This document shows, one piece after another, positions 28,104-63,920 of a stretch of DNA of 64,000 nucleotides (position 1 is its first letter; each line of letters starts with the position of its first letter). The stretch comes from Mageeibacillus sp. Lineage in GTDB: Bacteria > Bacillota > Clostridia > Saccharofermentanales > Saccharofermentanaceae. The translations under genes and the position numbers were made by a program. The notes beneath the pieces were generated by a model, which had not been told where the DNA came from, did not search any database, and worked only from the letters and a program-made list of their open reading frames with translations. The stretch is from positions 310,001-374,000 of the forward strand of contig JAKVLB010000001.1 in assembly GCA_022484595.1 (NCBI GenBank), written 5' to 3'.

Positions 28104-28200
28104 CACAAATCTCCTCCGCGCAAGAAAATTTCAAAAGATAATTTATAATAGCACTTACAAGTGACAGTTGCGTCTGTTCAGCATGAAGTTTTTATTATAT

Positions 28201-31200: not shown

Positions 31201-31380
31201 CGGATGGATAGCCTTGGCCGCGCCTCTGCCGAAATACTCCGAGCGATCCTCGCGTCTGGCACCAATCATCTGGTAATAACCGTCATTGAGATATACCGTC
31301 TCGATTCTGCTGCCGGTCAGATCATATACACCGACACCTGAAGGAATACTGTTGATAGTAATATAGTCATTGAGTTCCAT
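28201..31380 (-). CDS. Multi-PAS hybrid sensor histidine kinase
   Basis: 1059 residues from the ATG at 31380 (AGGA eight bases upstream; a TTG two codons earlier is less likely). No membrane segment is seen. About four to five PAS domains occupy ~1-660 (motifs such as GVGVYDLTG, YRVTGEDGAIHWINS, YPVRTSRGDIMWV). HisKA (SHDMRTPLNG), HATPase_c (NIISNAIKYTPDGG, DTGIGI, GTGLGLSIV) and a receiver (LMDIRMPLMNG) follow. It has the same overall plan as the 1375-residue kinase, and no Hpt. A TTGAGA/TATAAT promoter lies directly upstream, so transcription of the kinase cluster probably begins here. Confidence 0.92.
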   Translation of the reverse strand: MELNDYITINSIPSGVGVYDLTGSRIETVYLNDGYYQMIGARREDRSEYFGRGAAKAIHPDDYGTIVRAAHECIRDNKRMLEIVCRVLTGTGSYCWLGLRANHIRLENGTERFFAVYFDVDSYVSKQLSLEKISNTMTSILDNIPGGVAVLVYKDNRLRIDYANNAFYEIHCGSQEYWNNKNSDYLQGVISEERQQLINEFESMKSGEKKRGNMTYRVTGEDGAIHWINSVFNLSYSSGNVYQFYASFVNMDELKAMEQAKGEIRRMYEAAVEDAKLVVWEFDIVSHRVIMAENEFSMYDYRKFNLPKVTENVPASLVGYIDDSSVDAFLDMYSQIEDGKPHASCEVWYKLKPGTEPRCERIMYTTVFNGNGVPIRAYGIGQNITREKLAQEEYDRLRSQFAGNLTNIVSTTHLDISLNRYLGGYSPYQGVEEARRSTDADGHFRLVADTIDNAEIREQVLKKFNCKNLIEMYKRGEQQFEQIYPVRTSRGDIMWVTTTTHLTQNPESGSIEVITYTKDITRQKRINEIVERLSRINCDYIAVIDVAQKTFNVQNNNWDCDYIIEEKSFSFDSVRDILTKNYISDDKSASFLAMSELDVILKALDDKEQYVIAYDYFSRKDNGRPCKKLITLSWLNNDRRELLCMQQDVTETYRKEQEQIFKLEKANTEAVKANEAKSMFLSGMSHDMRTPLNGVLGYTALALKETEYDKIRDYLGKIDTSGKLLRDLINDVLELSKIESGKTVIDYEAAVPEDVIPSVAVSLRPSAELKNIKYTTDFDIDNTKVIWCDKLKIQRIALNIISNAIKYTPDGGSVSVNLKQSNNDGNNIQYVLDVNDTGIGISEEFIKNMFEPFSQEKRSEAITEQGTGLGLSIVKRYLDLIGGSISVSSKLHRGTQIEVVIPVESMQENIERESSITDVNAVLKDKHILLCEDNYMNREIAVMLLKEKGMIVETAENGLDGVDKFEESEEGSFDAVLMDIRMPLMNGYEATRRIRSLNRSDARTVPVIAMTADAFFESVKEASEAGMNSYITKPIEPGVLYSTIADSISGGECSVYHKV

Positions 31381-31424
31381 TGGCAATTCCTCTTTCCCCG
31401 GTTATTTGAAATAAGCTATCACAT

Positions 31425-31740: not shown

Positions 31741-32526
31741 TCAATAATCACCATCATCAAGAAATTCACTGAAATCGTCAAAAGTCTCTTCATCAGAAGC
31801 AATTACACTGCCGGCAGAACTGCTTTCGTTCTTCGCAGGCACGGGTTCTGCTTCAGAAGTCTTTTCTTCCGTAGCTTCAGGCACAGACTCTGCTTCAGCA
31901 GCCTTCTCTTCCGCGGCTTCAGACTCAATCTCTGCTTCAGCAGCATTTTTCTCAACAGTTTCCGGCGCAATATCTTCAGGCAGTTCGTCTTCAGAACCAT
32001 CGTCATCTTCCCGCTCAAGACGGTCTTCTTCGTCCTTTGATTTTGACTGTTCCCTTGACGCACGTTCTCTTGCTTCCTCAAGCATTCGCTGCTGAAGAAG
32101 CCTTCTTTCTTCTCTCGCACGGATCTTGGCGTCTTCTTCCTCTTTGCGCTCTTTCTCAGCTTTAAGATCGGCTTCAATTCTGGCACGGTCTTCATCACTT
32201 ACCTTGTTGTAATTATCCAGCTTAAGATTTGTCAAAGTCTCAGGAGCCTGAACAGCAGTACTGAGAATGACATTCATCCTCGCTCTGCTCTCCGAAGCCT
32301 GCTTCTCTTCGTCTGCAGCAATCTGGTCTCCCAAAGCCTGCATTCTTCGCATCTCTTCTGAAGTAGCTGCGTCAGGATGTCCGTCCGGCATAATTCTCGG
32401 AGCATGAGCCTTAACCTCAACACTGTCTATTCCGGATGCCGAGAAATCCGATGCGGCATGCTTTATAGCATCAATATCCGGAAGTTCAACTCCCGGAAGC
32501 AATTCATATTTTCGTTCCTTATCCAT
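31741..32526 (-). CDS. Acidic coiled-coil protein of unknown function, last gene of the vWA-PP2C operon
   Basis: 261 residues, no signal peptide or membrane segment. Residues ~60-170 are strongly helical and charged (DRARIEADLKAEKERKEEED), probably a coiled coil. Residues ~185-240 are Glu-Ala repeats of low complexity (EAAEEKAAEAES and close variants). The C-terminus reads FDDFSEFLDDGDY, much like the end of the vWA protein encoded two genes upstream (DVDDFMKFMDEDDK). GGGAGGG precedes the ATG. It lies 22 bp after the PP2C gene. Inference: a scaffold or phospho-substrate of the kinase/phosphatase pair. No known family was recognised. Confidence 0.75.
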   Translation of the reverse strand: MDKERKYELLPGVELPDIDAIKHAASDFSASGIDSVEVKAHAPRIMPDGHPDAATSEEMRRMQALGDQIAADEEKQASESRARMNVILSTAVQAPETLTNLKLDNYNKVSDEDRARIEADLKAEKERKEEEDAKIRAREERRLLQQRMLEEARERASREQSKSKDEEDRLEREDDDGSEDELPEDIAPETVEKNAAEAEIESEAAEEKAAEAESVPEATEEKTSEAEPVPAKNESSSAGSVIASDEETFDDFSEFLDDGDY

Positions 32527-32548
32527 TGTAATACCCTCCCTTGATATA

Positions 32549-33619
32549 TCAGTTAATCCACCCGATAATGGCGATAATCAGCAATACAGCGGAAAGTATC
32601 GCCAGTGCCACCGTGAGACGGCTCAAATGCTTGGGTACTGTCTTGTTGTCTGCCGCCGTGCCCTGTTTTGATTCGTCCGCCGAATCTTTCTCTGTTTTTA
32701 CGTTTTGTGCAGCCGAATCTGAAGCAGCGTCAGAACTCTTATGAGCAATAATCTCATGAGCCTTGACAAGCTCAGGCCTGATGGCCTTCATCAGTTCCGC
32801 AAAACTCTCGGACGATTTGCCGCATACTCCGGCCTGAGTCATGCACGCTGCAGCATCAGGCGCTCGAGTTCCGTCGAAAAGCATAACACCGAAACTTGCA
32901 TCATCGCTCATATTGCTTCCGGCCACTATATATTTCTCAATGGTCTCAAGCACAGCCTTCTCGCCGGCCTGTCTGCCTTCCGTAAATTCGTCGGCAAGTT
33001 TTACCACAACAGGTTTGACAAGGCACGAAGAATCATCATAAACATTGTCCTGTACGCCATCAGTCATAAGTGCTATTGCGTGACAATCATCAACTGTTGT
33101 CTTGATTAATCTGAGGTAATTGTCGGCGTGCGCCGCAGTAACAAAATACGTTTTTCCGTCCTTATCGTTCTGAGGCATAGATATAGGGCTTATGCCGGAA
33201 GGCGATATACGTACTATAAGTCCGTCGCCGATATGGCCTATCATCATCCTGCGGTCCTTAACAGCTGCAAACAGCAGCGTACATGACAGTCTGTCAATTA
33301 CATCAAGACTTCGCTCCTGCATTATTTTCGCAAACTCCACACGGAGCTTCGCCATAAGATAACCGCGCACTGCAGCGTCGCAATTCTCGGCATAGAGCGC
33401 ATCAAAATGCTCACACAGCACCGACGATATCGTCTCTACGGCACAGGCTGAACCAAAACGCGCGTCGGTATACTGTTTGCCACCGGCGCCGTCAGCAATA
33501 CAAACCACTGAAACTCCGTTCACGGTTGCAGCAAATGACGCATCCTCACAGGGCGTGTTGCGGTTCTTATGTTTGTTGCCTATGGTTGTGACGCAGCCGA
33601 CAGTAATAACTGAACACAT
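32549..33619 (-). CDS. PP2C-family serine/threonine phosphatase with C-terminal membrane anchor
   Basis: 356 residues. PP2C metal ligands are visible in CEDASF, ADGAGGKQ, IGHIGDGLI, MTDGVQDN and DDASFGVM. A polar linker (~265-330) leads to a single membrane helix at about 334-353, close to the C-terminus. It should dephosphorylate Ser/Thr residues at the membrane, opposing the kinase encoded two genes upstream. Its ATG overlaps the vWA stop codon by one base (TAATG), so the two are made together. The vWA-PP2C-kinase combination matches TerY-linked triads described in Ter stress systems. Confidence 0.92.
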   Translation of the reverse strand: MCSVITVGCVTTIGNKHKNRNTPCEDASFAATVNGVSVVCIADGAGGKQYTDARFGSACAVETISSVLCEHFDALYAENCDAAVRGYLMAKLRVEFAKIMQERSLDVIDRLSCTLLFAAVKDRRMMIGHIGDGLIVRISPSGISPISMPQNDKDGKTYFVTAAHADNYLRLIKTTVDDCHAIALMTDGVQDNVYDDSSCLVKPVVVKLADEFTEGRQAGEKAVLETIEKYIVAGSNMSDDASFGVMLFDGTRAPDAAACMTQAGVCGKSSESFAELMKAIRPELVKAHEIIAHKSSDAASDSAAQNVKTEKDSADESKQGTAADNKTVPKHLSRLTVALAILSAVLLIIAIIGWIN

Positions 33620-34356
33620 TACTTGTCATCCTCGTCCATAAATTTCATAAAATCATCTACGTCAACCGCTTCACCCTCAGGTTCAGCCGTCATGTTATAG
33701 AGTGCATCGTCATTCATTCCGGATGATACAATCGAAGAAGACGAAGAACCAAGAAACTCAAAGAGCTTCCCAAAGTCCGCAGAATTAACGGAGATAGGCG
33801 CCTCACGCTTCACGGAGAGCCTCTTGAGAATATCGAAATCAACGCCTGAACCGACACCGATATTGAACACAACCAGTTTATCGTTCTTCTCAAGCTCGTT
33901 ACACGCGGCAATCGCCAGTTCCATATTCTTCATGGCATTCGGACCTTGAGGCGCGCCGTCCGTAATAACAACAAGCCATGGCTGATAATACTTGATTCCG
34001 AATTCCTTATAGCCTTCCTTGCGGGCATTCAGAAGCTCCAGAGCTGTAATGATGCCCTCTCCTATAGGAGTAAGCGTTGTGGATGCGCTGATTTCCGGCA
34101 GTCCCCTTTCCTTGGATATCTTTCCGAAAGGCATTACAATATCTACCTTTGAACCAAATGTTATGATTGCGATATCAGTTGAAGACCTTGTCTCGTCATT
34201 AGCCTTGATTGACGCCATAAAATTCTGCAGACCCATGTTAAGCTGTTTTATCGGATTACCCATCATTGAACCCGATGTATCAAGCGCGAAACAAATCGGT
34301 AATCTTCTCTTGGTACTGCTTCCAAAATCTGAAGCACTGAAATTATCTTCAGCCAT
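33619..34356 (-). CDS. TerY-like von Willebrand factor A domain protein
   Basis: 245 residues from the ATG at 34356, preceded by GGAGG; an upstream TTG would add 15 unlikely residues. The vWA MIDAS is complete: DTSGSMMG, the Thr in STTLTPIGEG, and the Asp in ITDGAPQG. The fold runs from ~12 to ~190 and is followed by an acidic tail ending DVDDFMKFMDEDDK. No signal peptide, so cytosolic. TerY-type vWA proteins bind metal and act as adaptors in stress systems along with a kinase and a PP2C phosphatase. No TerD or TerC gene is near, so a tellurite phenotype should not be assumed. Confidence 0.9.
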   Translation of the reverse strand: MAEDNFSASDFGSSTKRRLPICFALDTSGSMMGNPIKQLNMGLQNFMASIKANDETRSSTDIAIITFGSKVDIVMPFGKISKERGLPEISASTTLTPIGEGIITALELLNARKEGYKEFGIKYYQPWLVVITDGAPQGPNAMKNMELAIAACNELEKNDKLVVFNIGVGSGVDFDILKRLSVKREAPISVNSADFGKLFEFLGSSSSSIVSSGMNDDALYNMTAEPEGEAVDVDDFMKFMDEDDK

Positions 34357-34407
34357 TATAAACCTCCGGCCACTATGGCAAATTAATATCTGTTCAAACA
34401 AATTATA

Positions 34408-36060
34408 TCAGAAAAGACCTAAGAATTTGCCTTTTTTCGAGGTATTCTCAACATCTGTCACGGCATTCTTCTGTTCTTCGTTATCCTGCGGTCTGAAATC
34501 CTTCGGAACATACTTTCCTGACGGTGCGTTTGTAAACGTCTTCTTAACATACCTCGGCTTTAACGGCTCATAAGAACCGCTGCCGGCAGTTTGCGCTGCG
34601 GTCAGCACAACAGAAGCCTGATCATAGTCAGACAACGGGAAAACCTTATATGCCTCGGGGCTGTCTATCTTCTGTCCCATAAGCTGTTCCTTATATGACA
34701 GGACAGCATCAAGCCATTCAATCGCCTCATAAACCTTTCCGTTGCGGAAGGTCTCATAAAGCATGACTCTGATACTCTCGGGAAGAAATCTCCATATCTG
34801 ATTGTACCCTCCGAGCGGAATATGTTCCTCCTCAGAATTATCGAGCGTATACGGGAAATTTCTGTTGATTATCTCTTCACGCAGAGTCTCCGCGCCACGC
34901 CTTGTCGCATAAGGATGAAGCCCGCAGAACAGCACTGAGAACACCAGCATGGCTATTGAATAATCTTCATCGCCAAGCGTTCTGACAAATCCGGAAAAAT
35001 TCCTTCCCCACAGCCTCGGATCAGTAAATTCCTCTGTTCCCACAGGACAAGGCAGGTTGCTGATCTGTACACTGTCCATATCGATAAGATAAACACTTGA
35101 AGAAGAATAAATAAGCGCATTCTTAAGCTGAATATCGCCGGCAATGACGTCATGCATATGAAGATAGAGATATTTCTCAATGAGGGACAGAAGAGTGTCA
35201 ACGACATCAAGTCTCGTCCACTTTGGAAACTGCTCAAGCAAAGCATCCGGACCGTCGAAAACGTTGCCAAGTGTCACGCCTCTCCCCAGCGTCATGGTAT
35301 AACCCACCGGCACATTCTGGAAGTACAGCAGCTGACGCGGAAGGCAGAAGCCTTCCCCGTTAATTCCAAGTTCCGACAGCTTTTTCAGCTTTGCCCAGCG
35401 TAAAGGTGTAATGACACCCTTGTGATAGATCTTGGCAACAATATTGCGCTGATCCGTAAGGAAGACCATTCCTTCGGCACCACCGCTCAGGCGCTTGACA
35501 AGTTCAAATGACATCGAACCGTCAGCAGTCTTAACCACATCCATGACACTTGCTATGGCAGAAGAATCTATATGGGTATTGTTGCCTGCAAGTCTGCTCA
35601 GAGCAGGCAGAGGCAACTGATCGGCAAGATCCCTGACAGAACCGAAAGTTCTGATTCCGTCAGAACAAAGAATTGCAAGAACGCATTTAAGCTCAGGCTG
35701 CTTCTCGTATAATCTCTTGGTAAAAATGCCTTTCCTTGTAGTAAGAATTACGCAATCGGGAACTGCATTTACTTTATCAATAAACGCGCAGGTCTCAATC
35801 TCCTGCACCAGATGAAGCCGGTGATCCGGCAGGAGAAATGAACAGATATTCTTCATCGCAATGTTGACATCGCTGTTCTTCACGTCTGTCTGATAAACGG
35901 AACAGTAATGCAATGTCTTAAACGTCTTGCTGACGTATACATCAACAGAACTTGTCATGATCCATTCAGTAAATTCATCGAAAACAGGAGTTCCGGCAAA
36001 CTCACTTATGACCGAATAATCAAGGGCAACAGCCCCATACTGCGAAATTACTTCAAACAT
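34408..36060 (-). CDS. Protein kinase-like protein with PIN-like N-terminal domain
   Basis: 550 residues. Residues 1-160 show a PIN-like pattern: ALDYSVI with D14, VYVSKTFKTL, then DCVILTTRKGIFTKRL. Some nuclease acids appear lost (TTR where TND is usual). The kinase domain spans ~185-460: glycine loop LSGGAEGMVF, ATP-binding lysine K210, catalytic GDIQLKN (D309, N314) and the DFG counterpart DMD (D327). The ~90-residue tail is polar and ends GKFLGLF. It resembles the kinases that accompany TerY vWA and PP2C proteins. It is the first gene of its operon, with a promoter at 36099-36127. Substrates are unknown. Confidence 0.85.
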   Translation of the reverse strand: MFEVISQYGAVALDYSVISEFAGTPVFDEFTEWIMTSSVDVYVSKTFKTLHYCSVYQTDVKNSDVNIAMKNICSFLLPDHRLHLVQEIETCAFIDKVNAVPDCVILTTRKGIFTKRLYEKQPELKCVLAILCSDGIRTFGSVRDLADQLPLPALSRLAGNNTHIDSSAIASVMDVVKTADGSMSFELVKRLSGGAEGMVFLTDQRNIVAKIYHKGVITPLRWAKLKKLSELGINGEGFCLPRQLLYFQNVPVGYTMTLGRGVTLGNVFDGPDALLEQFPKWTRLDVVDTLLSLIEKYLYLHMHDVIAGDIQLKNALIYSSSSVYLIDMDSVQISNLPCPVGTEEFTDPRLWGRNFSGFVRTLGDEDYSIAMLVFSVLFCGLHPYATRRGAETLREEIINRNFPYTLDNSEEEHIPLGGYNQIWRFLPESIRVMLYETFRNGKVYEAIEWLDAVLSYKEQLMGQKIDSPEAYKVFPLSDYDQASVVLTAAQTAGSGSYEPLKPRYVKKTFTNAPSGKYVPKDFRPQDNEEQKNAVTDVENTSKKGKFLGLF

Positions 36061-36098
36061 AGTCCCTCACAACCTAAAGAATGAAAATCTCCAACATA

Positions 36099-36127
36099 AT
36101 TTTATAATAAATGTGATTTTCGTTCAA
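36099..36127 (-). promoter_or_regulatory. Predicted promoter of the kinase-vWA-PP2C operon
   Basis: Minus strand TTGAAC (36122-36127), 17-base spacer, TAAAAT (36099-36104), about 40 bp before the kinase ATG. The region 36061-36226 is AT-rich and also holds an inverted repeat (CATTTG/CAAATG at 36202-36219) that could be an operator. Confidence 0.5.
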
Positions 36128-36226
36128 CAAAATTGAAGAAATTGTGTCAGATTTTGGCACAATAGTTAAAACTAAGAGTGAAATATCCTTTTGTGTTGAT
36201 CCATTTGACAAATCAAATGACAAAGT

Positions 36227-38077
36227 CTATACGATTCCGACAAGGCGCATAAGATACCGCGCATTTGACTCCCTGCTTATTCCCTCCCTGAGCATATAAT
36301 CAAATGTTATTCCGGAATCCGTATAATGCTCGCTGAAATGATAGTAAACAATGTTGTCAAACTTCTCGCATGTCCTGTCAATCATTGCGTAATCATGAGT
36401 CGTCATCATTCCGCAGATATGAGGCAAAGACAGGTTGTGAAGAACCGTCAGTGCGCCTTCGGTCCTGTCATCAGAGTTTGTTCCCCGGAAAATCTCATCT
36501 ATCAGAAACAGCATAGGAAGGCCTGTACCGGCGCCTTTGATAATTCCGGAAATTCTAATAAGCTCAGCCTTGAAGGTGCTGATATTGTCCTCCAGGCTGT
36601 CGACAATCCTCATCGAAGACATTATTCTCATACGTCCGAGAACCAGACTGTCGCAGTTAACCGGCGCGCCCGTGTATGCAAGAATGCAGGAAACACCTAC
36701 AGTTCGTATCAGCGTTGTCTTTCCTGACATGTTGGAACCTGTGATAAGAGCTATATCGGAATTGATTGTCACGGAGTTGGGAACTGCCGAGTCCTTTGAC
36801 AAAAGAGGATGAACAATCTGCTCACCTTTAAAATACGCATTGTCAGAGGGCTCATCTGACGCTACAAACTGCGGGAAATTGCTGTTTGCTGATGTCAGCA
36901 TCACCTGTGCCGCGCACATCATAGCCTCAATCTGACCGAGATTATCAAGTTCACCGGAAAGCTCCGAACCGTACTTTTCTGACCACTTTCCCATAAGGAA
37001 CGACACAAAATAGTCAAGCGGTAGAACCGAATTCAACAGCAGAGCAAATAGCGGCTGGTTTCTCAGAGACGCGAAAAACAGTGCGGTCGACAATGCAAAA
37101 AGCGAATCTGAAGTACGCCCGGCTCCAATCAGATCTGACAGAAGCTCAGACTTGAAGTCCGCTTTTTCGAGCTCCATAAACAGTCTCCACATAGTTCTGA
37201 CCTGGTTGCTCATTCCGTTCGCACTTCTCAGATATTCACTGTTTGCTCCGAGCCCGATAACCCAGAAAATGATATTGATCGCGATAACTCCAAGCGCAGC
37301 TGTTCCTGCGAGAGACGGATTGATAAAAATCATCACAAGCGGCACAATCCAAAGACATGGACCAATGCACATAACAGCTGTCGCCGCTTTGCCGGGTTTT
37401 CTTCCGTTGGCGCTGAAATCCATAAGCGCCTGCGGCAATCTCTCCATTCCGCCGTCTCTGGCTATTGCCTGATAACGTTCAAGGAAAAACGGACACTTTC
37501 CGAGTTCTTCAACAGATTTCTGGCGCATGACAAGTTCGGCAACGTTCCTTTTTCCTGAGTTGACTCCAAGCAGTTCATTTGCAAAAGCCTGACGGCCGAT
37601 TGCAGTTTCGGAAACATTATAGAGCGAGAAAATCGATTTTCTCCCGAACAGATCAAGGTCAAGACAATAGTCGTGATTTGCATCGAAATACTCTTTACCG
37701 GAGAATCTGTCCATCGCAGCCTCGATGTCATCGCGCCTCTTGAGTCCCATCACGGCTGCATTGCCCAAAGTATTGAAATCACCGTTTATTCTTGCTATAT
37801 ACTGTGAATTTACAAGTGAAAGCATCTCAAAGTAATTCTGCTTCTTGCGCACACCTTCATGAACAAAACACATCATAATAAACGCAAAAAAGAAGCACGC
37901 CGCGCTGAATCCTATGATTGATGCTTTATTTGCAACAGACCAGACCAGAGTTGATATGGCAAGAATAAACGTTGCAAACCTGACAATACTGAGGATTATG
38001 CTCTTGCTGCTGCTATCCTTTATATCACCGGTTATCTTCAGTTCACGTTCCTCAAACGCATTAAGATTTGCTTTCAT
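36227..38077 (-). CDS. Membrane-anchored MutS-type ATPase
   Basis: 616 residues from the ATG at 38077 (MKANLNAFEERE). A longer frame is open to 38203, but those 42 residues are only the out-of-frame end of the sirtuin gene. Two membrane segments lie at ~30-75 and two to three more at ~235-285 and ~345-375. The MutS-family domain V ATPase is C-terminal: Walker A GSNMSGKTTLIRT, Walker B LFLIDEIFRGTNSDDR, and MMTTHDY. There is no mismatch-recognition domain, so this is not a repair MutS. It starts 17 bp before the sirtuin gene ends, so the two are coupled. Its biological role is unknown. Confidence 0.88.
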   Translation of the reverse strand: MKANLNAFEERELKITGDIKDSSSKSIILSIVRFATFILAISTLVWSVANKASIIGFSAACFFFAFIMMCFVHEGVRKKQNYFEMLSLVNSQYIARINGDFNTLGNAAVMGLKRRDDIEAAMDRFSGKEYFDANHDYCLDLDLFGRKSIFSLYNVSETAIGRQAFANELLGVNSGKRNVAELVMRQKSVEELGKCPFFLERYQAIARDGGMERLPQALMDFSANGRKPGKAATAVMCIGPCLWIVPLVMIFINPSLAGTAALGVIAINIIFWVIGLGANSEYLRSANGMSNQVRTMWRLFMELEKADFKSELLSDLIGAGRTSDSLFALSTALFFASLRNQPLFALLLNSVLPLDYFVSFLMGKWSEKYGSELSGELDNLGQIEAMMCAAQVMLTSANSNFPQFVASDEPSDNAYFKGEQIVHPLLSKDSAVPNSVTINSDIALITGSNMSGKTTLIRTVGVSCILAYTGAPVNCDSLVLGRMRIMSSMRIVDSLEDNISTFKAELIRISGIIKGAGTGLPMLFLIDEIFRGTNSDDRTEGALTVLHNLSLPHICGMMTTHDYAMIDRTCEKFDNIVYYHFSEHYTDSGITFDYMLREGISRESNARYLMRLVGIV

Positions 38078-38987
38078 CTTTGGCTTTACCTTCAGAAGCC
38101 TTCTTCGGACCGGTCTTCTTTGCAGCCGTTTTCTTTGCGGCAGGCTTCGCTGAACCGGTCTTTTTTGACCCTTTACTCTTTGAATCAGACTTTTTTGCAG
38201 CACTTTGAGGTTTGTTTACACGTTTTGGTATGCACTTGTCAAGCACATCTCCGACATTGTCATGAATTGTAAGCAATGCCGTGAGATCCATATATGTTGA
38301 ACTCTTGTTGATAATAACTATCCTGTCGTGCTTGAGGAACTGGGCAAATGTCGCCGCCGGATAAACAGTAAGCGAAGTTCCGGCAATAATAAGCAGATCG
38401 CAATTCTTTACCGCTTTAATCGCGTCGTCAACATTCTTATGTTCAAGATTCTCCTCATAAAGAACTATGTCAGGTCTGACAATTCCGCCGCAGACATCAC
38501 AATGCGGAACGCCGGGCTGTGCCACAACATACTCGGTGTCAAACTTCTTGCCGCATTCCATGCAGTAATTTCTGAACACAGAGCCATGAAGTTCAATAAC
38601 ACACTTGCTCCCTGCCTCCTGATGAAGGTTATCGATATTCTGGGTAATAATCGCCTTGAGCTTGCCCTGTTTCTCAAGTCTGACAAGTGCCTTGTGAGCT
38701 TTATTCGGCTTGGCATCCGGATATATCAGTTTGCGCTTGTAGAAATCATAGAAATCTTCTGTGTGCGTCATGAAAAAATCATGTGCAATGATGTCTATCG
38801 GACGATATTTCGTACCGCTCTCAGTATTATAGATACCCGTTCCGCCTCTGAAATCAGGAATTCCGCTCTCCGTCGATACCCCGGCTCCTCCGAGGAAAAC
38901 TATATTGTTTGATTCGGCGATAAGCTGTTTCAGCTGTTTTAGTTTGTCTTCCTGAACACTGCCAAGCCTGTCTATTCTCGTTTCCAA
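38061..38987 (-). CDS. Sir2 NAD-dependent deacylase with lysine-rich C-terminal tail
   Basis: 308 residues; bacterial sirtuins usually have about 240. The core (1-257) has NAD motif GGAGVSTESGIPDFRG, TQNIDNLH, catalytic H134, zinc cysteines C142/C145/C163/C166 and GTSLTVYPA. Residues 258-308 are an Ala-Lys tail (SAAKKSDSKSKGSKK and similar), like bacterial histone-H1-type proteins. It removes acyl groups from lysines using NAD. The tail suggests binding to DNA, RNA or an acidic partner such as the protein encoded at 31741-32526. The start is a TTG with AGAGGTG upstream; no ATG is available before the core. Confidence 0.9.
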   Translation of the reverse strand: METRIDRLGSVQEDKLKQLKQLIAESNNIVFLGGAGVSTESGIPDFRGGTGIYNTESGTKYRPIDIIAHDFFMTHTEDFYDFYKRKLIYPDAKPNKAHKALVRLEKQGKLKAIITQNIDNLHQEAGSKCVIELHGSVFRNYCMECGKKFDTEYVVAQPGVPHCDVCGGIVRPDIVLYEENLEHKNVDDAIKAVKNCDLLIIAGTSLTVYPAATFAQFLKHDRIVIINKSSTYMDLTALLTIHDNVGDVLDKCIPKRVNKPQSAAKKSDSKSKGSKKTGSAKPAAKKTAAKKTGPKKASEGKAKDESKS

Positions 38988-39002
38988 AACGCACCTCTGC
39001 TA

Positions 39003-39464
39003 TTAATGATGATCGATTATATCGTCAAGGTCGAAATGACCGTCGCCGTTTATATCCCCTTCGGCCTGGCTGAACGCTCCGGCAGCTCCGAACATCTCTT
39101 TTCCGGTTACCCGCTTCTCATCACGTCTCTGTTCAACAAGCGTGCTGATAGCCTTGCTGACGCGTTCTACAGACTTTACGCTTTTAATCTCAACCAGCGG
39201 AGTCGATTTATCGGCCGTATTAAGAACAATCGTCCCGACGCCGAATATCTTCTGTCCGAATGAACGCTTTACCGAAATATCAAGGACACGGTACAGAAGC
39301 AGTTCCTCTCTGTCAACATTGAGCAGCCCCTTTGACATATAGAACTTTGATTTGCTGAAACTGTAATCTGTAAATGATACAGGAAGACCGAAATATCGTT
39401 TCTTGTCTTTCCATAATATCTCTTCGTCTTGTGTCAGTGCGGTAAGCTTATCAATTTTGGGCAT
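39003..39464 (-). CDS. PH-like domain protein with C-terminal EF-hand/dockerin-type loop
   Basis: 153 residues from the ATG at 39464, with AGGAGGA six bases upstream; an upstream in-frame start at 39485 is weaker. Residues ~12-110 resemble bacterial PH-like (bPH/YdbT-type) domains: ILWKDKKRYFGLPVSF then beta strands RVLDISVKRSFGQKIFGVGTI. Residues 137-148 read DINGDGHFDLDD, a perfect DxNxDGxxDxxD calcium-loop pattern. There is no signal peptide, so a secreted cellulosome dockerin is unlikely. It is the first gene of an operon with the sirtuin (15 bp) and MutS-type ATPase. Its function is unknown. Confidence 0.75.
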   Translation of the reverse strand: MPKIDKLTALTQDEEILWKDKKRYFGLPVSFTDYSFSKSKFYMSKGLLNVDREELLLYRVLDISVKRSFGQKIFGVGTIVLNTADKSTPLVEIKSVKSVERVSKAISTLVEQRRDEKRVTGKEMFGAAGAFSQAEGDINGDGHFDLDDIIDHH

Positions 39465-39563: not shown

Positions 39564-41459
39564 TCACTCTTCAGAGTTTCTTGCCGGATCCAATATGGTG
39601 CTGACATCAAGTATTCTCGAATAGTCAATCTTTTCGAGAGTATTGCCGCTCAGAATGGCTCTGTCAAAATACAGATAGTTGTCGCCATATGTATAATACG
39701 GCCTTGAGCCTATTCCAAAGAATATCCGGAATCCCTGATTCTTTAGATATACAGCCCGTTCATCAGTGCCGTTGATATAATTTCCTCCCGGATAAACAAG
39801 CATATGCGTCTCGCCGAGCAAGGACCCTATCTGCGTCTTCCACTTATCGGTATCCGACTGAATTGTCGCCATATCACATTTTGACGCGTCCGCAAGATAC
39901 CCGTATGTACATGAAGCAAACTTCCATCCCGTATCCCGAAGTGTATTCGCTATCGCAGTCACACTGTTGCAATTTGCCTGTATATCAGCACTGCTCGGAT
40001 TGATGGACGGAAGATTCCTGGCATTGAGGTCGGCATTGCGGTCGTCGACTTCATCTTCGTTTACGACATAACCGAAACATGATTCAAAACCGCTTACCGA
40101 GATAACGCCCTTGGCGCCGTCATAAGTAAAGTCCGGATGTTCCTCCACGAAACTGTCCAATATACCGATTGCTTCCGCATTCCGGCTTACCACAAGCGAA
40201 TCGTCTCCGTTGTCACCTGTCTGCATATACTCACCGCACACCTGACCACGGTCATTAAGAACCAGCCTTCTGCATGTTCCGCAACTGAAATCCGAAGCAC
40301 TGTAGCTTAAGTTCTCAATTACGATTATCAGCGGTTTCTTGCCTGTCGGTATCGTAAGGTTCTGCTCCACCAGATAGGATGAATCACCCATGCCCGCAAG
40401 ATTCTCTCCGTCAACAAGACAATACCCCTCGCTGTAAAGCTGATTCAATATCGCAGTAAACTCATCACATGTAAGATAAAGACCACGGTCATTGCTGCCA
40501 TAGCTCTCGGCAAAAGCCGTATTGCGGTCTGCGATGAGCGATCTTACGCACAGAACTTCCACAGCTCCGTAATACTCCTGTGTCTGTGTCGTATGTCCCG
40601 TTGCCTCAAGCAGATCCGTCTTGATTCTCTCATCATCAGGGAATATAACAGCCAGATCCGACAGCAGCGATTCGGCGGAGTAATACCTGAAAGTATCAAG
40701 CATGTGTTCGCCTTCTTCCATCATCGGGTCATACATTATATCCTTGATTTCCGCTATTCTCTCAACTGAATAAGTGTTCACAAAACCATCGTACTTCCCG
40801 CTGATCTCCTGATATTTCTGAACCGCCGATATATAGTCCTCGTCAGCGAACGAGGCTTCTGCATTCTGAACATCGCCTGTCGCAGTCTCAATGTAATCAA
40901 TCTCTCGCAGAAGCGGCTTTGCGGTCGCGGAAAAATTGCTTATAGGCGACAGCTGGTCGAAAACAAATATCACATCAGGCTTCTCAAGCTGCCCAAGAAG
41001 GAACTGTACGCACAAATCATTAAGCCACTGTGACACAACCGAAGACGAAAGCTCTTCCATTGAATCAAGAAACAGTACATCTGAATTTGAAGGCACATAG
41101 CGCTCACCCAAGACTCTTGTACATATGGAATCAACCCTGGTCTTCACAATTGATTCCATATCGTCAAGCATGGAAGTCTCTTCCGTCATGTTCGCGGCTT
41201 CCTGCGGAGAGGCGGCAAGCACCTCATCCTGAACGTTTCTGTAAATTGATATCGCCTTGTCATAATCGCCGGAATCAATAGCCGCCTGGAAATCAGGAAT
41301 GGTCATGTTCTTGTACTCATTCATCTTTCCGATAACAACGAAAACAACGACAGCCGCAATCATGGTCACTGCGCACAGCAAGGCCGCAAGTCTGTAGCCC
41401 CATCCGGTTTTCTTTCTTTCCGGGTCACCAATGTTTAATTCAGTCGCAAAATTACTCAA
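39564..41459 (-). CDS. Membrane-anchored polysaccharide-deacetylase-like protein, probably inactive
   Basis: 631 residues. One membrane segment at ~25-45 follows a cytosolic start, so the bulk lies outside the cell. Residues ~55-300 have TPR-like helical repeats (SGDYDKAISIYRNV, DYISAVQKYQEI). The C-terminal ~270 residues resemble the NodB deacetylase fold in Firmicutes: PLIIVIENLSY stands where TFDDG is expected, and FASCTYGY stands where ASHTYGH is expected. The metal-binding Asp and both His are therefore replaced, suggesting a sugar-binding or structural role. It overlaps the parC stop by four bases (ATGA). Confidence 0.75.
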   Translation of the reverse strand: MSNFATELNIGDPERKKTGWGYRLAALLCAVTMIAAVVVFVVIGKMNEYKNMTIPDFQAAIDSGDYDKAISIYRNVQDEVLAASPQEAANMTEETSMLDDMESIVKTRVDSICTRVLGERYVPSNSDVLFLDSMEELSSSVVSQWLNDLCVQFLLGQLEKPDVIFVFDQLSPISNFSATAKPLLREIDYIETATGDVQNAEASFADEDYISAVQKYQEISGKYDGFVNTYSVERIAEIKDIMYDPMMEEGEHMLDTFRYYSAESLLSDLAVIFPDDERIKTDLLEATGHTTQTQEYYGAVEVLCVRSLIADRNTAFAESYGSNDRGLYLTCDEFTAILNQLYSEGYCLVDGENLAGMGDSSYLVEQNLTIPTGKKPLIIVIENLSYSASDFSCGTCRRLVLNDRGQVCGEYMQTGDNGDDSLVVSRNAEAIGILDSFVEEHPDFTYDGAKGVISVSGFESCFGYVVNEDEVDDRNADLNARNLPSINPSSADIQANCNSVTAIANTLRDTGWKFASCTYGYLADASKCDMATIQSDTDKWKTQIGSLLGETHMLVYPGGNYINGTDERAVYLKNQGFRIFFGIGSRPYYTYGDNYLYFDRAILSGNTLEKIDYSRILDVSTILDPARNSEE

Positions 41460-43720
41460 TTCATGTCATCAAAGCTGATCTGCTTCGCCTCTAAAGATTT
41501 CTCTCTGATATAGTAGCCGATTGCAGGAACCTTACGGATTCTGTAGTATTCCGGATCCGTCACATCGAGTTCCTCAAGTCTGTTAAGGCTCTTAAGAATT
41601 GAACCTTTCTTGGATGCAAGAAGCTGAACTCCCTGAGTCGTTCTTGTGGTCTTCAGCGGAATCAGCGATGACTTGAACACCGCCGCCTTGTCAACATTGT
41701 TGGTAACCACAAGATCCGGGTCTTCATCTTCAGAAAGAAGCAGAAATCCGACAGCCTTGCTTCCGTCATAATAGGCGTTGACGAGCTTCTTTCTGTTCTG
41801 TTTGGTCTCATAGGCCGATATAGGGAATCGCGCTGCCTTGCCGTTCTCGAACGCCACGAAAAACAACCCCTTGTAGTCCTGAGTTGATATCATGAACACC
41901 GGTGTCTCATCAGCATCCATGCCGAGCTCAGACCTCAGGAAATGGCCCAGATCCCCCGGTTTGGTATCTGTAAATTCATAGACATGCGACTTGTACAGGT
42001 TGCATTTATCGGTAAAGATAAGCAGATCGCTGCGGTTCTCAGCCTCAAACGCCATGAATATCTCGTCTTCTTCCTTTGTTCTCAGTTCTCCGGCACTTCT
42101 GAGTGACTGCATGGTATGCTTCTTAAGATAGCCGTGTCGGGTAAGCAACAGATGCAGTCTGTAATCAGGAATTACCTGTGTCTCCTCAAAAGCCGGCGTC
42201 TCCTGGGAAGATACCAGCTCCGTTCTTCTGGGCTGACCGTATTTTGCGGAGACTTCCTTAAGTGTCTTTGCAATTAAAGTATTGATTCTCTCCGGACGTT
42301 TAAGCGTGTCCTCGGTATCGGCAATATCTTTCTCAAGAGCTTCGCGATCCGCAACGCGGTTCATTATATACTGTTTGTTTATGTTGCGAAGCTTAATCTC
42401 CGCGACGTATTCAGCCTGCTCGTTATCAATATCAAAGCCCTTCATGAGGTTTGGAATAACGTCCTCTTCAAGCTCTGTATTGCGGATGATGTGTATGGCT
42501 TTGTCAATGTCCAATAAAATCGCTGCAAGACCGTCAAGAAGATGAAGCTTCTTTCTCATCTTTTCAAGATTGAACTCAAGCTCGCGTCTGATACAGCCGG
42601 TTCTCCACTTAAGCCACTCGGAGATAATCTCACTTACTCCCATAACCTTAGGGCTTCCGTCTATCAGTATGTTAAAGTTGCAGGAGAACGTATCCTGAAG
42701 CTTTGTAAATCTGAACAGCTTTGTCATCAGGGCATCGTGGTCAGTGCCTCTCTTGCAGTCTATCGTAATCTTAAGACCGTCAAGGTCTGTCTCATCTCTG
42801 ATATCAGATATTTCTTTTGCCTTTCCGGATTTGACGAGTTCCGCAATATTGTCAATTATCGCCTCAACGCTCGTAGAATAAGGAATCTGGGTTATCTCAA
42901 TAAGATTGTTCCTGCTGTCAACCTTATATTTGGATCTTACGCTTATGGAACCTCTGCCGGTCTCATATATCTGTCTCATCTGTTCCCTGTCATAAAGAAG
43001 CAATCCGCCACCCGAGAAATCCGGGGCCGGCATATAGTCCATAAGATCTACGCTTCTGTCTTTGAGATATGCCTCTGTTGCTGCACAGACTTCAGAGAGA
43101 TTGAATGAACAGATATTTGATGCCATTCCGACAGCTATGCCCTGATTGGCATTTACCAGCACAGCAGGGAACGTTGTAGGCAGAAGCGACGGTTCTTTGA
43201 GCGTACCGTCATAATTATCCATCATAGGAACTGCATTCTTATCGATTCCTTTGAAAATCTCTTCACACAGCTTCTCAAGTCTTACTTCAGTATAACGCGG
43301 CGCGGCGAACTGCATATCTCTTGAGTACTGTTTACCAAAGTTGCCCTTGGAATCAACATACGGGTGAAGCAGAGAAGCATTGCCGCGCGTAAGGCGTACC
43401 ATGGTCTCATATATTGCCATATCTCCGTGCGGATTGAGCTTCATCGTCTGGCCGACAACATTTGCCGACTTCGTCCGGTTGCCGCCGAGCAGACCCATCT
43501 TATACATCGTGTACAGGAGCTTGCGGTGCGCAGGCTTGAAGCCGTCAATCTCCGGAATTGCTCTTGAAACAATTACGCTCATCGCATACGGCATGTAGTT
43601 CACTTCGAGCATCTCGGTTATCGGCTGATCCACAGCAGGCATATCAGCGGCGTTCGCATCTGTGTAGCGCGCCTTTATAGAATCCTCGTTTCTGTTTGTC
43701 TCTTTACTCTTCTTACTCAT
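41456..43720 (-). CDS. parC: DNA topoisomerase IV subunit A
   Basis: 754 residues. The breakage-reunion domain has AHRKLLYTMYKM, NPHGDMAIYETMVRL and the active tyrosine in AAPRYTEVRL. A beta-propeller-like C-terminus follows from about 490. Topoisomerase IV unlinks replicated chromosomes. It lies 20 bp after parE in one operon, which argues for topoisomerase IV rather than gyrase; the gyrase GyrA-box is not seen. The gene after it overlaps by four bases. Confidence 0.92.
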   Translation of the reverse strand: MSKKSKETNRNEDSIKARYTDANAADMPAVDQPITEMLEVNYMPYAMSVIVSRAIPEIDGFKPAHRKLLYTMYKMGLLGGNRTKSANVVGQTMKLNPHGDMAIYETMVRLTRGNASLLHPYVDSKGNFGKQYSRDMQFAAPRYTEVRLEKLCEEIFKGIDKNAVPMMDNYDGTLKEPSLLPTTFPAVLVNANQGIAVGMASNICSFNLSEVCAATEAYLKDRSVDLMDYMPAPDFSGGGLLLYDREQMRQIYETGRGSISVRSKYKVDSRNNLIEITQIPYSTSVEAIIDNIAELVKSGKAKEISDIRDETDLDGLKITIDCKRGTDHDALMTKLFRFTKLQDTFSCNFNILIDGSPKVMGVSEIISEWLKWRTGCIRRELEFNLEKMRKKLHLLDGLAAILLDIDKAIHIIRNTELEEDVIPNLMKGFDIDNEQAEYVAEIKLRNINKQYIMNRVADREALEKDIADTEDTLKRPERINTLIAKTLKEVSAKYGQPRRTELVSSQETPAFEETQVIPDYRLHLLLTRHGYLKKHTMQSLRSAGELRTKEEDEIFMAFEAENRSDLLIFTDKCNLYKSHVYEFTDTKPGDLGHFLRSELGMDADETPVFMISTQDYKGLFFVAFENGKAARFPISAYETKQNRKKLVNAYYDGSKAVGFLLLSEDEDPDLVVTNNVDKAAVFKSSLIPLKTTRTTQGVQLLASKKGSILKSLNRLEELDVTDPEYYRIRKVPAIGYYIREKSLEAKQISFDDMN

Positions 43721-43740
43721 TATTTCTGTCTCCGGTCCTT

Positions 43741-45735
43741 TTATCCGATATCGAGCATATCAAGATACAGATGCCCGTCCTGTTCTATGTGAAGCTTTCT
43801 TCCCTGGAGGTTGTCTCCGAGCAGAAGTTCGAAAATCTCCGAGGTCTTTCTGGCCTCTTCCGGACAGACCTTGATAAGTCTCCTGGATTTCGGGTTCATT
43901 GTGGTCTGCCACATCATCTCCGGTTCATTCTCGCCTAAACCTTTGGATCGCTGTATGCTGCACAGCTTCTGGTCAATCCCTGCAAGGATCTCCGTCTTCT
44001 CCTTCTCATTGAAAGCGAACAGTGTCTGCTCCTGCGCATTCTTGCCCTTCGGCCTGTACGTAATCTCGAAAAGCGGAGACTCGGCAATATATACGAAGCC
44101 CTTTTCGATCAATGTAGGTGTAAGCCTGTAAATCATCGCAAGAATAAGCGTTCTTATCTGGAATCCGTCCACATCGGCATCAGTGCAGATAATTATCTTG
44201 TTCCATCTGAGATTCTCGAGATTAAAGGCACTCAGATCCTTGTTATGCTTGTTTGAGATCTCAACTCCGCACCCGAGCACCTTCAAAAGATCCGTAATAA
44301 TCTCGCTGTTAAAAATCGCGTTGTAATCCGCCTTAAGACAGTTGAGGATCTTACCCCTGACTGGCATTACAGCCTGAAACTCGGCATCTCTGCCGAGTTT
44401 GACGGAACCCAACGCCGAATCACCCTCAACTATATAGAGTTCCCTTCTGTCAACATCTCTGGTTCTGCAATCAACAAACTTCTTGATTCTGTTATTGATA
44501 TCAAGCGTCCCCATCAGCTTCTTCTTGATGTTTATCCTTGTCTTTTCCGCGTTCTCTCTGGAACGCTTGTTTACAAGAATCTGATCGACAACCTTATCTC
44601 CCGCTTCCTTGAACTCGGTAAACCATACCTCAAGATTGTCCCTGATAAGTGACGTCATGTACTCCTGGATGAACTTGTTGTTAATCGCCTTCTTTGTCTG
44701 GTTCTCATATGATGTCTGCGTCGAAAATGTATTCGTCACCAGTATCAGCGAATCCGCCACATCCTGAAACACAATCTTCGATTCGTTGGCCTTGTATTTG
44801 TCGCGCAGCTTGATCTGACGGTCAACTTCACTTACAAAGGCACTCTTCACAGCCTTGTCAGGCGATCCGCCGTATTCAAGAAAACTTGAGTTATGGAAAT
44901 ATTCAAGATAATTGTTCTCATTGTTGAAGCAGAAAGCAACCTCAGCCTTAACCTTGTATTCATCACGGTCAGCCTTATCTCTGCCCTTGCCCTCGCCGGT
45001 AAAAAAGAACGAATCCGTGAAGCCTTTCATATCCGAGAGCTCATCGACATAGGCTCTTATTCCTTCCGGATAACTGTAACTGAACTCCTGACCGCTCTCA
45101 GAGTCTTTGAGAACAAACTCGATTCCGCTGTTTATAACCGACTGTCTCTTGATTATCTCCTGAAATGTCTCAAGCGGAATCACCGTCTCGGTGAAGACTT
45201 CAGAATCAGGCTTCCAGCGCTGGATTGTACCTGTTCGCCTGAATTTATAAGGCTCTGATATAAGCTCTGTAGCAGCTTCACCCTTCTTAAAAGAAATATG
45301 GTACTTTGTCTTGTCGCGCATTACGGTTACATCAAAAAACTCGGACGCATACTGTGTGGCGCAAGCGCCGAGTCCGTTAAGTCCCAGTGAATATTCATAG
45401 TCACCGGAAGCATTATTGTTATATTTGCCGCCGGCATAAAGTTCGCAGTATACAAGCTCCCAGTTATATCTTTGTTCCTTCACGTTATAGTCAAGCGGTA
45501 TTCCTCTTCCGAAATCCTCAACCTCAATTGTTCCGTCCGGAAATCTTGTAATATTTATCCTGTCACCATAGCCTTCACGAGCTTCATCAATTGAATTTGA
45601 AAGAATCTCGAAGAATGAATGAATACATCCCTCCAGATTATCAGAACCGAATATAACGGCAGGACGAAGCCTGACTCTGTCGGCTCCCTTGAGCATTGAA
45701 ATACTCTCGTTACCGTATTCATCTTTCTTTGGCAT
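43741..45735 (-). CDS. parE: DNA topoisomerase IV subunit B
   Basis: 664 residues. The GHKL ATPase domain has ILSNSIDEAREG and the DFGRGIP loop; the transducer follows, then the TOPRIM domain with EGDSALGSVKLGRD and DADVDGFQIRTL. The C-terminus is complete, ending YLDMLDIG. Pairs with ParC encoded directly downstream. An extended -10 promoter lies just upstream, and the gap beyond contains the tRNA-Arg/Gly terminator. Confidence 0.93.
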   Translation of the reverse strand: MPKKDEYGNESISMLKGADRVRLRPAVIFGSDNLEGCIHSFFEILSNSIDEAREGYGDRINITRFPDGTIEVEDFGRGIPLDYNVKEQRYNWELVYCELYAGGKYNNNASGDYEYSLGLNGLGACATQYASEFFDVTVMRDKTKYHISFKKGEAATELISEPYKFRRTGTIQRWKPDSEVFTETVIPLETFQEIIKRQSVINSGIEFVLKDSESGQEFSYSYPEGIRAYVDELSDMKGFTDSFFFTGEGKGRDKADRDEYKVKAEVAFCFNNENNYLEYFHNSSFLEYGGSPDKAVKSAFVSEVDRQIKLRDKYKANESKIVFQDVADSLILVTNTFSTQTSYENQTKKAINNKFIQEYMTSLIRDNLEVWFTEFKEAGDKVVDQILVNKRSRENAEKTRINIKKKLMGTLDINNRIKKFVDCRTRDVDRRELYIVEGDSALGSVKLGRDAEFQAVMPVRGKILNCLKADYNAIFNSEIITDLLKVLGCGVEISNKHNKDLSAFNLENLRWNKIIICTDADVDGFQIRTLILAMIYRLTPTLIEKGFVYIAESPLFEITYRPKGKNAQEQTLFAFNEKEKTEILAGIDQKLCSIQRSKGLGENEPEMMWQTTMNPKSRRLIKVCPEEARKTSEIFELLLGDNLQGRKLHIEQDGHLYLDMLDIG

Positions 45736-63779: not shown

Positions 63780-63797
63780 CCGTCTGTATAAACGTTC

Positions 63798-63891
63798 CTC
63801 ATCTTTCAGGTTTCCCTGCCGGATTTGGCACCGCTGCTTTCCGCGGTTGCCGGGCTTCAAAGGGCCGGATCCCTCTACCACTCTTGATAAG
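63798..63891 (-). promoter_or_regulatory. SAM-I (S-box) riboswitch aptamer
   Basis: On the minus strand the conserved S-box elements appear in order: P1 CTTATC, AAGAG, the GGTAGAGGGA region, GGCCCTTTGAAGCCCGGCAACC, GGTGCCAAATCC, and AACCTGAAAGATGAG, whose end closes P1. SAM binding should stabilise P1 and allow the downstream terminator to form. Confidence 0.95.
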
Positions 63892-63920
63892 CAATGAACT
63901 CTAAATTTATTAGCAATGTA

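What the first reader, a model, noticed from the sequence alone, without database searches (positions are those of the whole stretch)
31741..39464. Candidate signalling system: PIN-kinase, TerY-like vWA, PP2C and acidic partner beside a PH/EF-hand, sirtuin and membrane MutS operon
Seen: seven consecutive co-directional genes in two tight operons, with overlaps of 1 bp (vWA-PP2C) and 17 bp (sirtuin-MutS). Known: TerY vWA, PP2C phosphatase and a kinase form a recurrent triad in Ter-type stress systems. Inference: the triad may control the sirtuin, the membrane ATPase and the PH protein at the membrane. I do not know of this full set being described, and TerD/TerC genes are absent, so it may be a stress or defence system outside the tellurite group.
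Basis: partly seen in the sequence, partly recalled or inferred. Interest (0 to 1): 0.7.

Follow-up and report, generated by a model that had tools for sequence, protein, structure and literature searches.

The report
Core TerY-type phosphoswitch in Saccharofermentans relatives
A kinase, a phosphatase and a metal-binding partner of a type known from patchy defence or stress islands appear here as a fixed, probably membrane-tethered part of the core genome of one family of gut bacteria, while the sirtuin, MutS-like and PH genes beside them are neighbours with no shown role in it.

Summary
The seven genes are real, with the stated coordinates and overlaps. Kinase, vWA and PP2C are a TerY-P-type triad with conserved signature residues, but without a detectable PIN nuclease, zinc ribbon or OB-fold. 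It is core genome, not a defence island: kinase in 108 of 115 genomes of one Clostridia family (62 of 62 good ones); vWA in 0 of 73 genomes of sister families. Gene order is fixed (70 of 70 loci holding all seven), but so are topoisomerase IV and, in many species, a PLP decarboxylase between the two 'operons'; synteny therefore does not show one system. PH occurs without the rest in sister families and has left the cluster in one genus. New features: the phosphatase ends in a predicted membrane helix in 40 of 40 loci, the kinase in such a helix or a short basic-aromatic tail; the vWA is more conserved than ParC; vWA and acidic protein share a C-terminal [DE]F..F[LMIFV] motif (69 of 79 and 52 of 77) absent from 1023 control frames. 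Best reading: a domesticated, membrane-tethered TerY-P phosphoswitch with an acidic client that copies the vWA tail. Output unknown.

The parts
34408..36060 (-). Ser/Thr-type protein kinase (550 aa) with an N-terminal PIN-like domain (residues ~1-150) and a disordered C-tail ending KKGKFLGLF
   Evidence: motifs GD[IL]Q[LM]KN 40/40 and ID[MI]DS 40/40 in relatives
33619..34359 (-). TerY-like vWA protein (246 aa), MIDAS motif intact, C-terminal tail VDDFMKFMDEDD
32549..33619 (-). PP2C-type phosphatase (356 aa) with a predicted C-terminal transmembrane anchor (residues 337-355, hydropathy)
31741..32526 (-). acidic, low-complexity partner (261 aa) with a conserved N-terminal motif and a C-terminal tail FDDFSEFLDDGD that resembles the vWA tail
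36227..38077 (-). membrane MutS-like ATPase (616 aa; 5 hydrophobic stretches, Walker A GSNMSGKTT); conserved neighbour, link to triad not shown
38061..38987 (-). sirtuin (SIR2 family NAD-dependent deacylase, 308 aa); conserved neighbour, link to triad not shown
39003..39464 (-). bPH_2 protein (153 aa) with a variable C-terminal EF-hand-like loop; found without the rest in sister families
41456..45735 (-). topoisomerase IV-type subunits (GyrB-like 43741-45735, ParC-like 41456-43720), part of the same conserved segment

Best explanation
The triad is a TerY-P-type protein-phosphorylation switch that has become a fixed chromosomal locus of one family of Saccharofermentans-like Clostridia. SEEN IN THE SEQUENCE: a monophyletic, colinear triad through the family; conserved kinase, phosphatase and MIDAS residues; a predicted membrane helix at the end of the phosphatase; a predicted helix or a basic-aromatic tail at the end of the kinase; no detectable PIN nuclease site, zinc ribbon or OB-fold on the kinase; a shared C-terminal tail motif on vWA and the acidic protein. 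INFERRED: it was captured once, before the family diversified, from the patchy PIN-kinase triads. Kinase and phosphatase act as opposing enzymes at the inner face of the membrane and set the phosphorylation of the acidic protein and/or vWA. The vWA protein is the metal-dependent hub. Its own tail and the copy on the acidic protein compete for one docking site, so the phosphorylation state of the tails decides which partner is held. The sirtuin, MutS-like and PH genes are stable chromosomal neighbours, not shown members.
For: Kinase in 108 of 115 family genomes, 62 of 62 near-complete; vWA in 106 of 115 in the family and 0 of 73 in sister families; the 41 family vWAs lie on one side of a branch with full support. 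Relatives elsewhere are patchy (5 of 397 other phylum genomes; 4 outside the family among 391 class genomes); 7 of 9 such stretches hold kinase, vWA and PP2C; of 8 of their kinases scanned, 6 match PIN_4/PIN_12 and 5 zf_Tbcl, some below the curated cut-off. One triad lies on a conjugative plasmid next to transposase and recombinase genes. PP2C C-terminal helix in 40 of 40; kinase C-terminal helix in 6 of 6 g2-g4 and 8 of 12 g5 loci, absent in 22 of 22 g1 loci, which end in tails such as KKKFFGLF or GLFGKFKRGLFN. Tail motif [DE]F..F[LMIFV] in the last 22 residues: vWA 69 of 79, acidic protein 52 of 77, other open frames 0 of 1023; in the window only these two of 83 open frames have it. vWA median identity within the genus 0.81 against ParC 0.73. 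Catalytic motifs.
Against: No biochemical data; substrate and output are unknown. The tail pattern was chosen after seeing the sequences, and the rows are related, so the control is not a probability. Recovered acidic proteins of g2 and g4 are short (114, 126 aa) and lack the motif; in the two g3 loci none passed 1e-3. PIN homology of the N-terminal domain is not significant by profile, so descent from PIN-kinases rests on the kinase domain. Membrane helices are from hydropathy only. Loss of the zinc ribbon could predate capture; one distant kinase (L174) and one of two in L173 also lack it. 'Mobile ancestor' rests on few distant loci.
Confidence: 0.6

Rival explanations
1. One seven-gene membrane signalling system: the triad controls the PH protein, sirtuin and membrane MutS ATPase.
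For: 70 of 70 complete named loci colinear on one strand; sirtuin/MutS overlap (median gap -4) and PH/sirtuin gap median 16 bases; MutS-like and PP2C proteins have predicted membrane helices.
Against: The same fixed order includes ParC, and a PLP decarboxylase stands between the two halves in 22 of 80 loci. PH in 26 of 73 sister genomes, none with the vWA; in 20 of 20 fetched stretches no sirtuin, MutS-like or triad gene beside it. PH on another contig in both g2 genomes. MutS-like in 3 of 73 sister genomes without vWA. No distant genus was found with the full set.
Confidence: 0.15
2. An anti-phage TerY-P defence system like those tested in E. coli and P. aeruginosa.
For: Same three-protein logic as TerY-P, which protects against phage (passages of PMC7699616 and PMC10889362); phage families match vWA (phrog_28389, E 2e-32) and kinase (phrog_37888, E 4e-12) and 3 phage contigs hold vWA relatives; one distant triad lies beside type I restriction-like open frames (L177, sequence look).
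Against: Core gene in the family, vertically inherited, no defence genes among the conserved neighbours, PADLOC without a real match for the triad; the vWA is among the most conserved proteins of the locus, which does not look like an arms race; no zinc ribbon or OB-fold detected on the kinase.
Confidence: 0.1
3. A housekeeping regulator of envelope growth or chromosome segregation, parallel to the PASTA kinase/PP2C pair. This is a proposal for the output and can be true together with the best explanation.
For: Core distribution; predicted membrane tethering; location next to topoisomerase IV; the family also keeps a PASTA kinase in 58 of 58 genomes, so this would be a second membrane Ser/Thr switch.
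Against: Location alone is weak evidence; no known division or envelope protein was recognised in the conserved segment.
Confidence: 0.3

Closest known systems
TerY-P triad (TerY-like vWA, PP2C, kinase with C-terminal zinc ribbon), e.g. [quoted passage not shown]
   Same: Same three enzyme/adaptor families in one operon, MIDAS intact.
   Different: No zinc ribbon detected; PIN-like domain without nuclease signature; predicted membrane anchors; extra acidic partner; no restriction or Ter genes among conserved neighbours; fixed in the core genome of one family.
Stand-alone antiphage TerY-P-like modules (kinase with OB-fold; Gao 2020 as cited in PMC11090510 and PMC7699616; variant in P. aeruginosa, PMC10889362)
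   Same: Kinase, phosphatase and vWA as a self-standing unit.
   Different: No OB-fold detected, not patchy within its family, no defence neighbours seen; antiphage activity untested here.
PIN-kinase/vWA/PP2C triads found here in other Bacillota genomes and on plasmids (L173-L177; Paenarthrobacter plasmid NZ_CP136443.1)
   Same: Closest relatives of the kinase domain in the phylum sample (33-38% identity), same gene order kinase-vWA-PP2C.
   Different: PIN match in 6 of 8 kinases scanned and invariant D22, E61, D111 in 6 aligned rows; zf_Tbcl in 5 of 8; two vWAs in L173 and L177; vWA tails like GIKGWAEL instead of DDFxxF.
PASTA kinase PknB/PrkC with Stp-type PP2C
   Same: Membrane Ser/Thr kinase against a PP2C.
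   Different: No PASTA domain matched here; a PASTA kinase is present in 58 of 58 family genomes, in G000 at another place.

Membership tests
TerY-P triad | TerY-like vWA with MIDAS motif | tested here: met
   VWA E 9.1e-14; D.SGS 40/40, TP[ILM]GEG 40/40, TDG 40/40. 'TerY-like' is by relation to vWAs of such triads and recall, not by a TerY model
TerY-P triad | PP2C phosphatase in the same operon | tested here: met
   PP2C_2 E 4.3e-30; vWA/PP2C gap median -1 over 78 loci
TerY-P triad | Ser/Thr kinase in the same operon | tested here: met
   Pfam weak (E 0.089); fold matches PknB and other kinases; catalytic motifs
TerY-P triad | kinase fused C-terminally to a zinc ribbon (or OB-fold in the antiphage version) | tested here: not met
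   no Pfam hit up to E 1; residues 490-550 have pLDDT under 50; 5 of 8 relatives outside the family have zf_Tbcl
TerY-P triad | association with tellurite, restriction or DNA-processing genes | tested here: not met
   conserved neighbours are topoisomerase IV, PH, sirtuin, MutS-like and PLP decarboxylase; TerD 1 of 58. The MutS-like protein has a DNA-repair ATPase domain, but in a membrane protein
PIN-kinase (patchy relatives) | N-terminal PIN nuclease domain with its acidic site | tested here: inconclusive
   model gives an order like a PIN domain (topology recalled); D14 in 24 of 24 rows of A6 (Glu in one row of A1); TQD region reads TTRKS-like; profile match not significant
Anti-phage defence system | match to known defence models, patchy distribution, defence-island context | tested here: not met
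   PADLOC; core distribution
Anti-phage defence system | protection against phage | not testable with these tools
   needs plating assays
Single seven-gene system | joint presence or absence of both halves outside the family | tested here: not met
   the sirtuin was not searched for genome-wide

The most novel reading that the evidence does not exclude
A mobile stress/defence phosphoswitch was domesticated at the root of a bacterial family into an indispensable membrane regulator. The acidic protein is a new client class that works by mimicking the C-terminal DDFxxF tail of the vWA hub and competing for its docking site, with the opposing membrane-anchored kinase and phosphatase deciding the winner.
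Probability: 0.3. Interest if true: 0.75.

Novelty: new variant of a known kind. Interest (0 to 1): 0.5.

Why it matters
In the papers seen, TerY-P triads are parts of restriction, tellurite or antiphage islands. A version kept by every near-complete genome of a family (62 of 62), without detectable nucleic-acid-linked domains and probably tied to the membrane, isolates the bare phosphoswitch. It offers a way to find the substrate and the role of the vWA hub. The shared vWA/acidic-protein tail gives a concrete, testable docking motif.

Tried and rejected
Defence reading: PADLOC, distribution and neighbours speak against it. One-system reading: weakened by sister families and by genus g2. Substitute for a missing PASTA kinase: rejected, PASTA kinase in 58 of 58. 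A second kinase of the patchy type elsewhere in the order: none at E up to 1e-15 in 188 genomes apart from the family's own; one match in G915 covers only the zinc-rich end of the profile. PIN by profile-profile: not significant. Foldseek on the whole kinase listed only kinases among the 50 best shown in the PDB, so it says nothing on the N-terminal domain; the 50 best of the viral library held no recognisable PIN protein, several rows being unnamed. PDB sequence searches: vWA found only inter-alpha-trypsin inhibitor heavy chain (E 1.1e-6), PH one weak hit (E 0.0037). Promoter and terminator scans were within about 1.2 standard deviations of their shuffled means and were not used. Paper searches: TerY-P (7 papers, passages of 4 seen), TerY with vWA/PP2C/kinase (0), MutS domain V with transmembrane (2), Saccharofermentans with von Willebrand (1), PIN domain with TerY (2), TerY with tellurite (2), vWA/MoxR/PP2C (3); apart from the passages only listings were seen, and none pointed to this locus. 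Most subscription papers are not held, and Anantharaman 2012 could not be read. A MutS-like model was made (mean pLDDT 77, ATPase end weak); no fold search was run on it.

Corrections to my own labels: 'SPOC' in my scripts is only a handle for the membrane protein 39564-41459, not a SPOC domain; 'LYSA' is a PLP decarboxylase of the Orn/DAP/Arg type; 'TGASE' is a transglutaminase-like protein.
Full report
What is there. Seven genes on the minus strand, 39464 down to 31741, as reported: PH, sirtuin, MutS-like, kinase, vWA, PP2C, acidic protein. Pfam supports five; the kinase scores E 0.089 and the acidic protein nothing. The kinase is real: an AlphaFold model from 24 family sequences (mean pLDDT 83) matches PknB and other protein kinases in the PDB, and in 40 family orthologues GD[IL]Q[LM]KN is present in 40, ID[MI]DS in 40 and [VI]A[KR].[YF] in 39, the miss being L042. 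The four PP2C motifs tested are present in 40 of 40 in loose form (30 to 38 of 40 in strict form), and the vWA MIDAS motifs in 40 of 40.

Whose genome. Record titles of the 80 relatives kept (of 109 found) name Saccharofermentans, Mageeibacillus, Ruminococcaceae, Oscillospiraceae and Clostridiales/Clostridia bacteria, many from rumen and gut. The genome tool calls the family f1; I infer that it is the Saccharofermentans family but did not look up its name.

Distribution. The kinase is in 108 of 115 family genomes, in all 5 genera and in 62 of 62 that are at least 90% complete and at most 5% contaminated. It is single-copy except for G014, with two partial matches on different contigs. The vWA is in 106 of 115 and in 0 of 73 genomes of the other families of the order; G084 has a second, weak vWA match (E 1e-11) elsewhere. 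Five family genomes lack kinase, vWA, PH and MutS-like alike (G022, G033, G050, G070, G085; 64 to 87% complete). In the phylum sample 5 of 397 other genomes have a distant kinase; in a class sample of 391 genomes 4 outside the family do. I fetched all 9 of these places: 7 hold kinase, vWA and PP2C (L172-L177, L180), L178 lacks a PP2C match, and L179 has only the kinase. Of 8 kinases scanned, 6 match PIN_4 or PIN_12 and 5 match zf_Tbcl, some of them below Pfam's cut-off. In the plasmid collection 50 records have a distant kinase match; the two that I opened, in Paenarthrobacter and Lysinibacillus, are kinase-vWA-PP2C triads, the first close to Mu-type transposase and recombinase genes on a conjugative plasmid. 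A tree of 52 vWAs puts the 41 family rows on one side of a branch (100/100), with each genus grouped. A profile of the patchy kinases finds, in 188 genomes of the order, only the family's own kinase, one per genome, and a zinc-end fragment in G915. So the triad is core and vertically inherited here, and patchy and partly mobile elsewhere.

Gene order. In 80 named loci, 70 hold all seven genes and 70 of 70 are colinear on one strand; the other 10 are cut by contig ends, judged from lengths and match positions. Only L111 has more than 1 kb between vWA and PP2C, a two-component/ABC cassette (named by sequence look); L070 has about 1.9 kb between sirtuin and MutS-like. The fixed block is wider than the finding: parC and a membrane protein precede PH (parE too where the stretch reaches), and in 22 of 80 loci a PLP decarboxylase stands between the MutS-like gene and the kinase; in 3 more it precedes the kinase at a cut contig. 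These named loci overlap with the 40 unnamed-genome loci, so they are not an independent sample, and they are mostly the window's genus. The triad plus acidic gene is tightly packed (median gaps 36, -1 and 7 bases); the MutS-kinase gap, where direct, is wider (median 122).

Is it one system? PH is in 108 of 115 family genomes and in 26 of 73 others. I fetched 20 of those 26: no sirtuin, MutS-like or triad gene was found within the stretch in 20 of 20, though stretches run only from 3.5 to 19 kb. In both g2 genomes PH is missing from its place in the cluster and lies on another contig. The MutS-like protein is in 109 of 115 and in 3 of 73 others at E up to 1e-60. The sirtuin was not searched genome-wide. 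So PH and MutS-like can exist without the triad, and the linkage, though strict inside the family, is shared by plain housekeeping genes. One system is not excluded but is not shown.

What differs from the patchy triads. First, no zinc ribbon or OB-fold is detected on the kinase; two of the 8 distant kinases lack any zinc match too, apart from the weak L180. Second, the N-terminal domain keeps a strand/helix order like a PIN domain (topology recalled) and one conserved Asp (24 of 24 rows of A6; Glu in one row of A1), but the TQD region of the relatives reads TTRKS-like, and the profile match is not significant; a nuclease is unlikely. Third, membranes: by hydropathy PP2C ends in a helix in 40 of 40 loci; the kinase ends in one in 6 of 6 g2-g4 and 8 of 12 g5 loci, and in g1 (0 of 22 with a helix) ends in short basic-aromatic tails, as 3 g5 loci do. 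The swap of a helix for such tails between relatives fits a membrane-anchoring role; this is inference. The PP2Cs of seven distant triads show no such end by eye. Fourth, an acidic protein is added: found after PP2C in 77 of 80 named loci, and in 33 of 40 unnamed loci at BLAST E under 1e-3, 38 of 40 at 1e-2.

The tails. The pattern [DE]F..F[LMIFV] in the last 22 residues occurs in 69 of 79 vWAs, 52 of 77 acidic proteins and 0 of 1023 other open frames of the same loci. In the window, 2 of 83 stop-to-stop frames of 130 codons or more have it, and these are the two. The pattern was chosen after looking, and rows are related. Distant vWAs end in sequences like GESVKLDVEGIKGWGEL, which align by eye without gaps with GESVDVDDFFKFMEE, so the vWA tail is old and the acidic protein carries what looks like a copy of its family version. 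In recovered g2 and g4 acidic proteins the motif is absent.

Rates. Median identity within the genus and between genera: vWA 0.81/0.67, ParC 0.73/0.58, sirtuin 0.72/0.68, PLP decarboxylase 0.66/0.58, PH 0.63/0.52, PP2C 0.54/0.41, 39564-41459 protein 0.52/0.45, kinase 0.51/0.36, MutS-like 0.44/0.35, acidic 0.39/0.23. Between genera the sirtuin is as conserved as the vWA. A vWA more conserved than ParC, with fast partners, fits a hub with many contacts rather than an arms-race protein; this is inference.

Mechanism proposed. Membrane-held kinase and phosphatase oppose each other; vWA is the metal-dependent hub; the acidic protein competes with the vWA tail for one docking site; phosphorylation tunes the tails. 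Only the anatomy is seen. The family also has a PASTA kinase in 58 of 58 genomes searched, so this is a further Ser/Thr switch, not a substitute.

Known work. From passages of PMC11090510: TerY-P is a TerY-like vWA, a PP2C-like enzyme and a kinase fused to a zinc ribbon, accompanies CoCoNuT restriction systems, and a version with an OB-fold is antiphage by itself. Passages of PMC7699616 and PMC10889362 report activity against T7-like phages and protection in P. aeruginosa. Passages of PMC4978471 describe a TerY-P island in H. pylori that seems to have lost its mobility, so a stable triad is not without precedent. None of these passages describes a fixed family-wide version; my searches cover only open papers.

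Verdict. A real, conserved locus; a new variant of TerY-P rather than a defence island, and not shown to be a seven-gene system. Interest 0.5.

Noticed in passing
L111:12707-18338: A response regulator, sensor kinase and ABC transporter cassette (named by sequence look) is inserted between the vWA and PP2C genes in one relative, splitting the otherwise fixed triad without breaking either gene.
   Followed up: partly
window 25266-31386 (minus strand): Two large hybrid histidine kinases with response-regulator domains (946 and 1061 aa; one with SBP_bac_3, one with PAS domains) lie directly downstream of the cluster; no match to them was found in the fetched stretches of 40 relatives.
   Followed up: partly
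L047-L050, L054-L056, L058-L075: A PLP decarboxylase gene stands just before the kinase in 25 of the 40 unnamed-genome loci and is absent there in the window.
   Followed up: partly
window 39564-41459 (minus strand): Conserved protein of 631 aa with one predicted membrane helix between ParC and PH, no Pfam family at the curated cut-off; its gene overlaps parC by 4 bases in the window and at the median in relatives.
   Followed up: no
window 63796-63893 (minus strand): SAM riboswitch (Rfam RF00162, 76.4 bits).
   Followed up: no
L210:1287-8998: A conjugative Paenarthrobacter plasmid carries an HTH, PIN-kinase, vWA, PP2C set right after recombinase, Mu-type transposase and AAA ATPase genes, suggesting transposon cargo.
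   Followed up: partly
L177:13-16737: A distant triad lies among open frames that look like type I restriction-modification parts, possibly a defence island (sequence look only).
   Followed up: no
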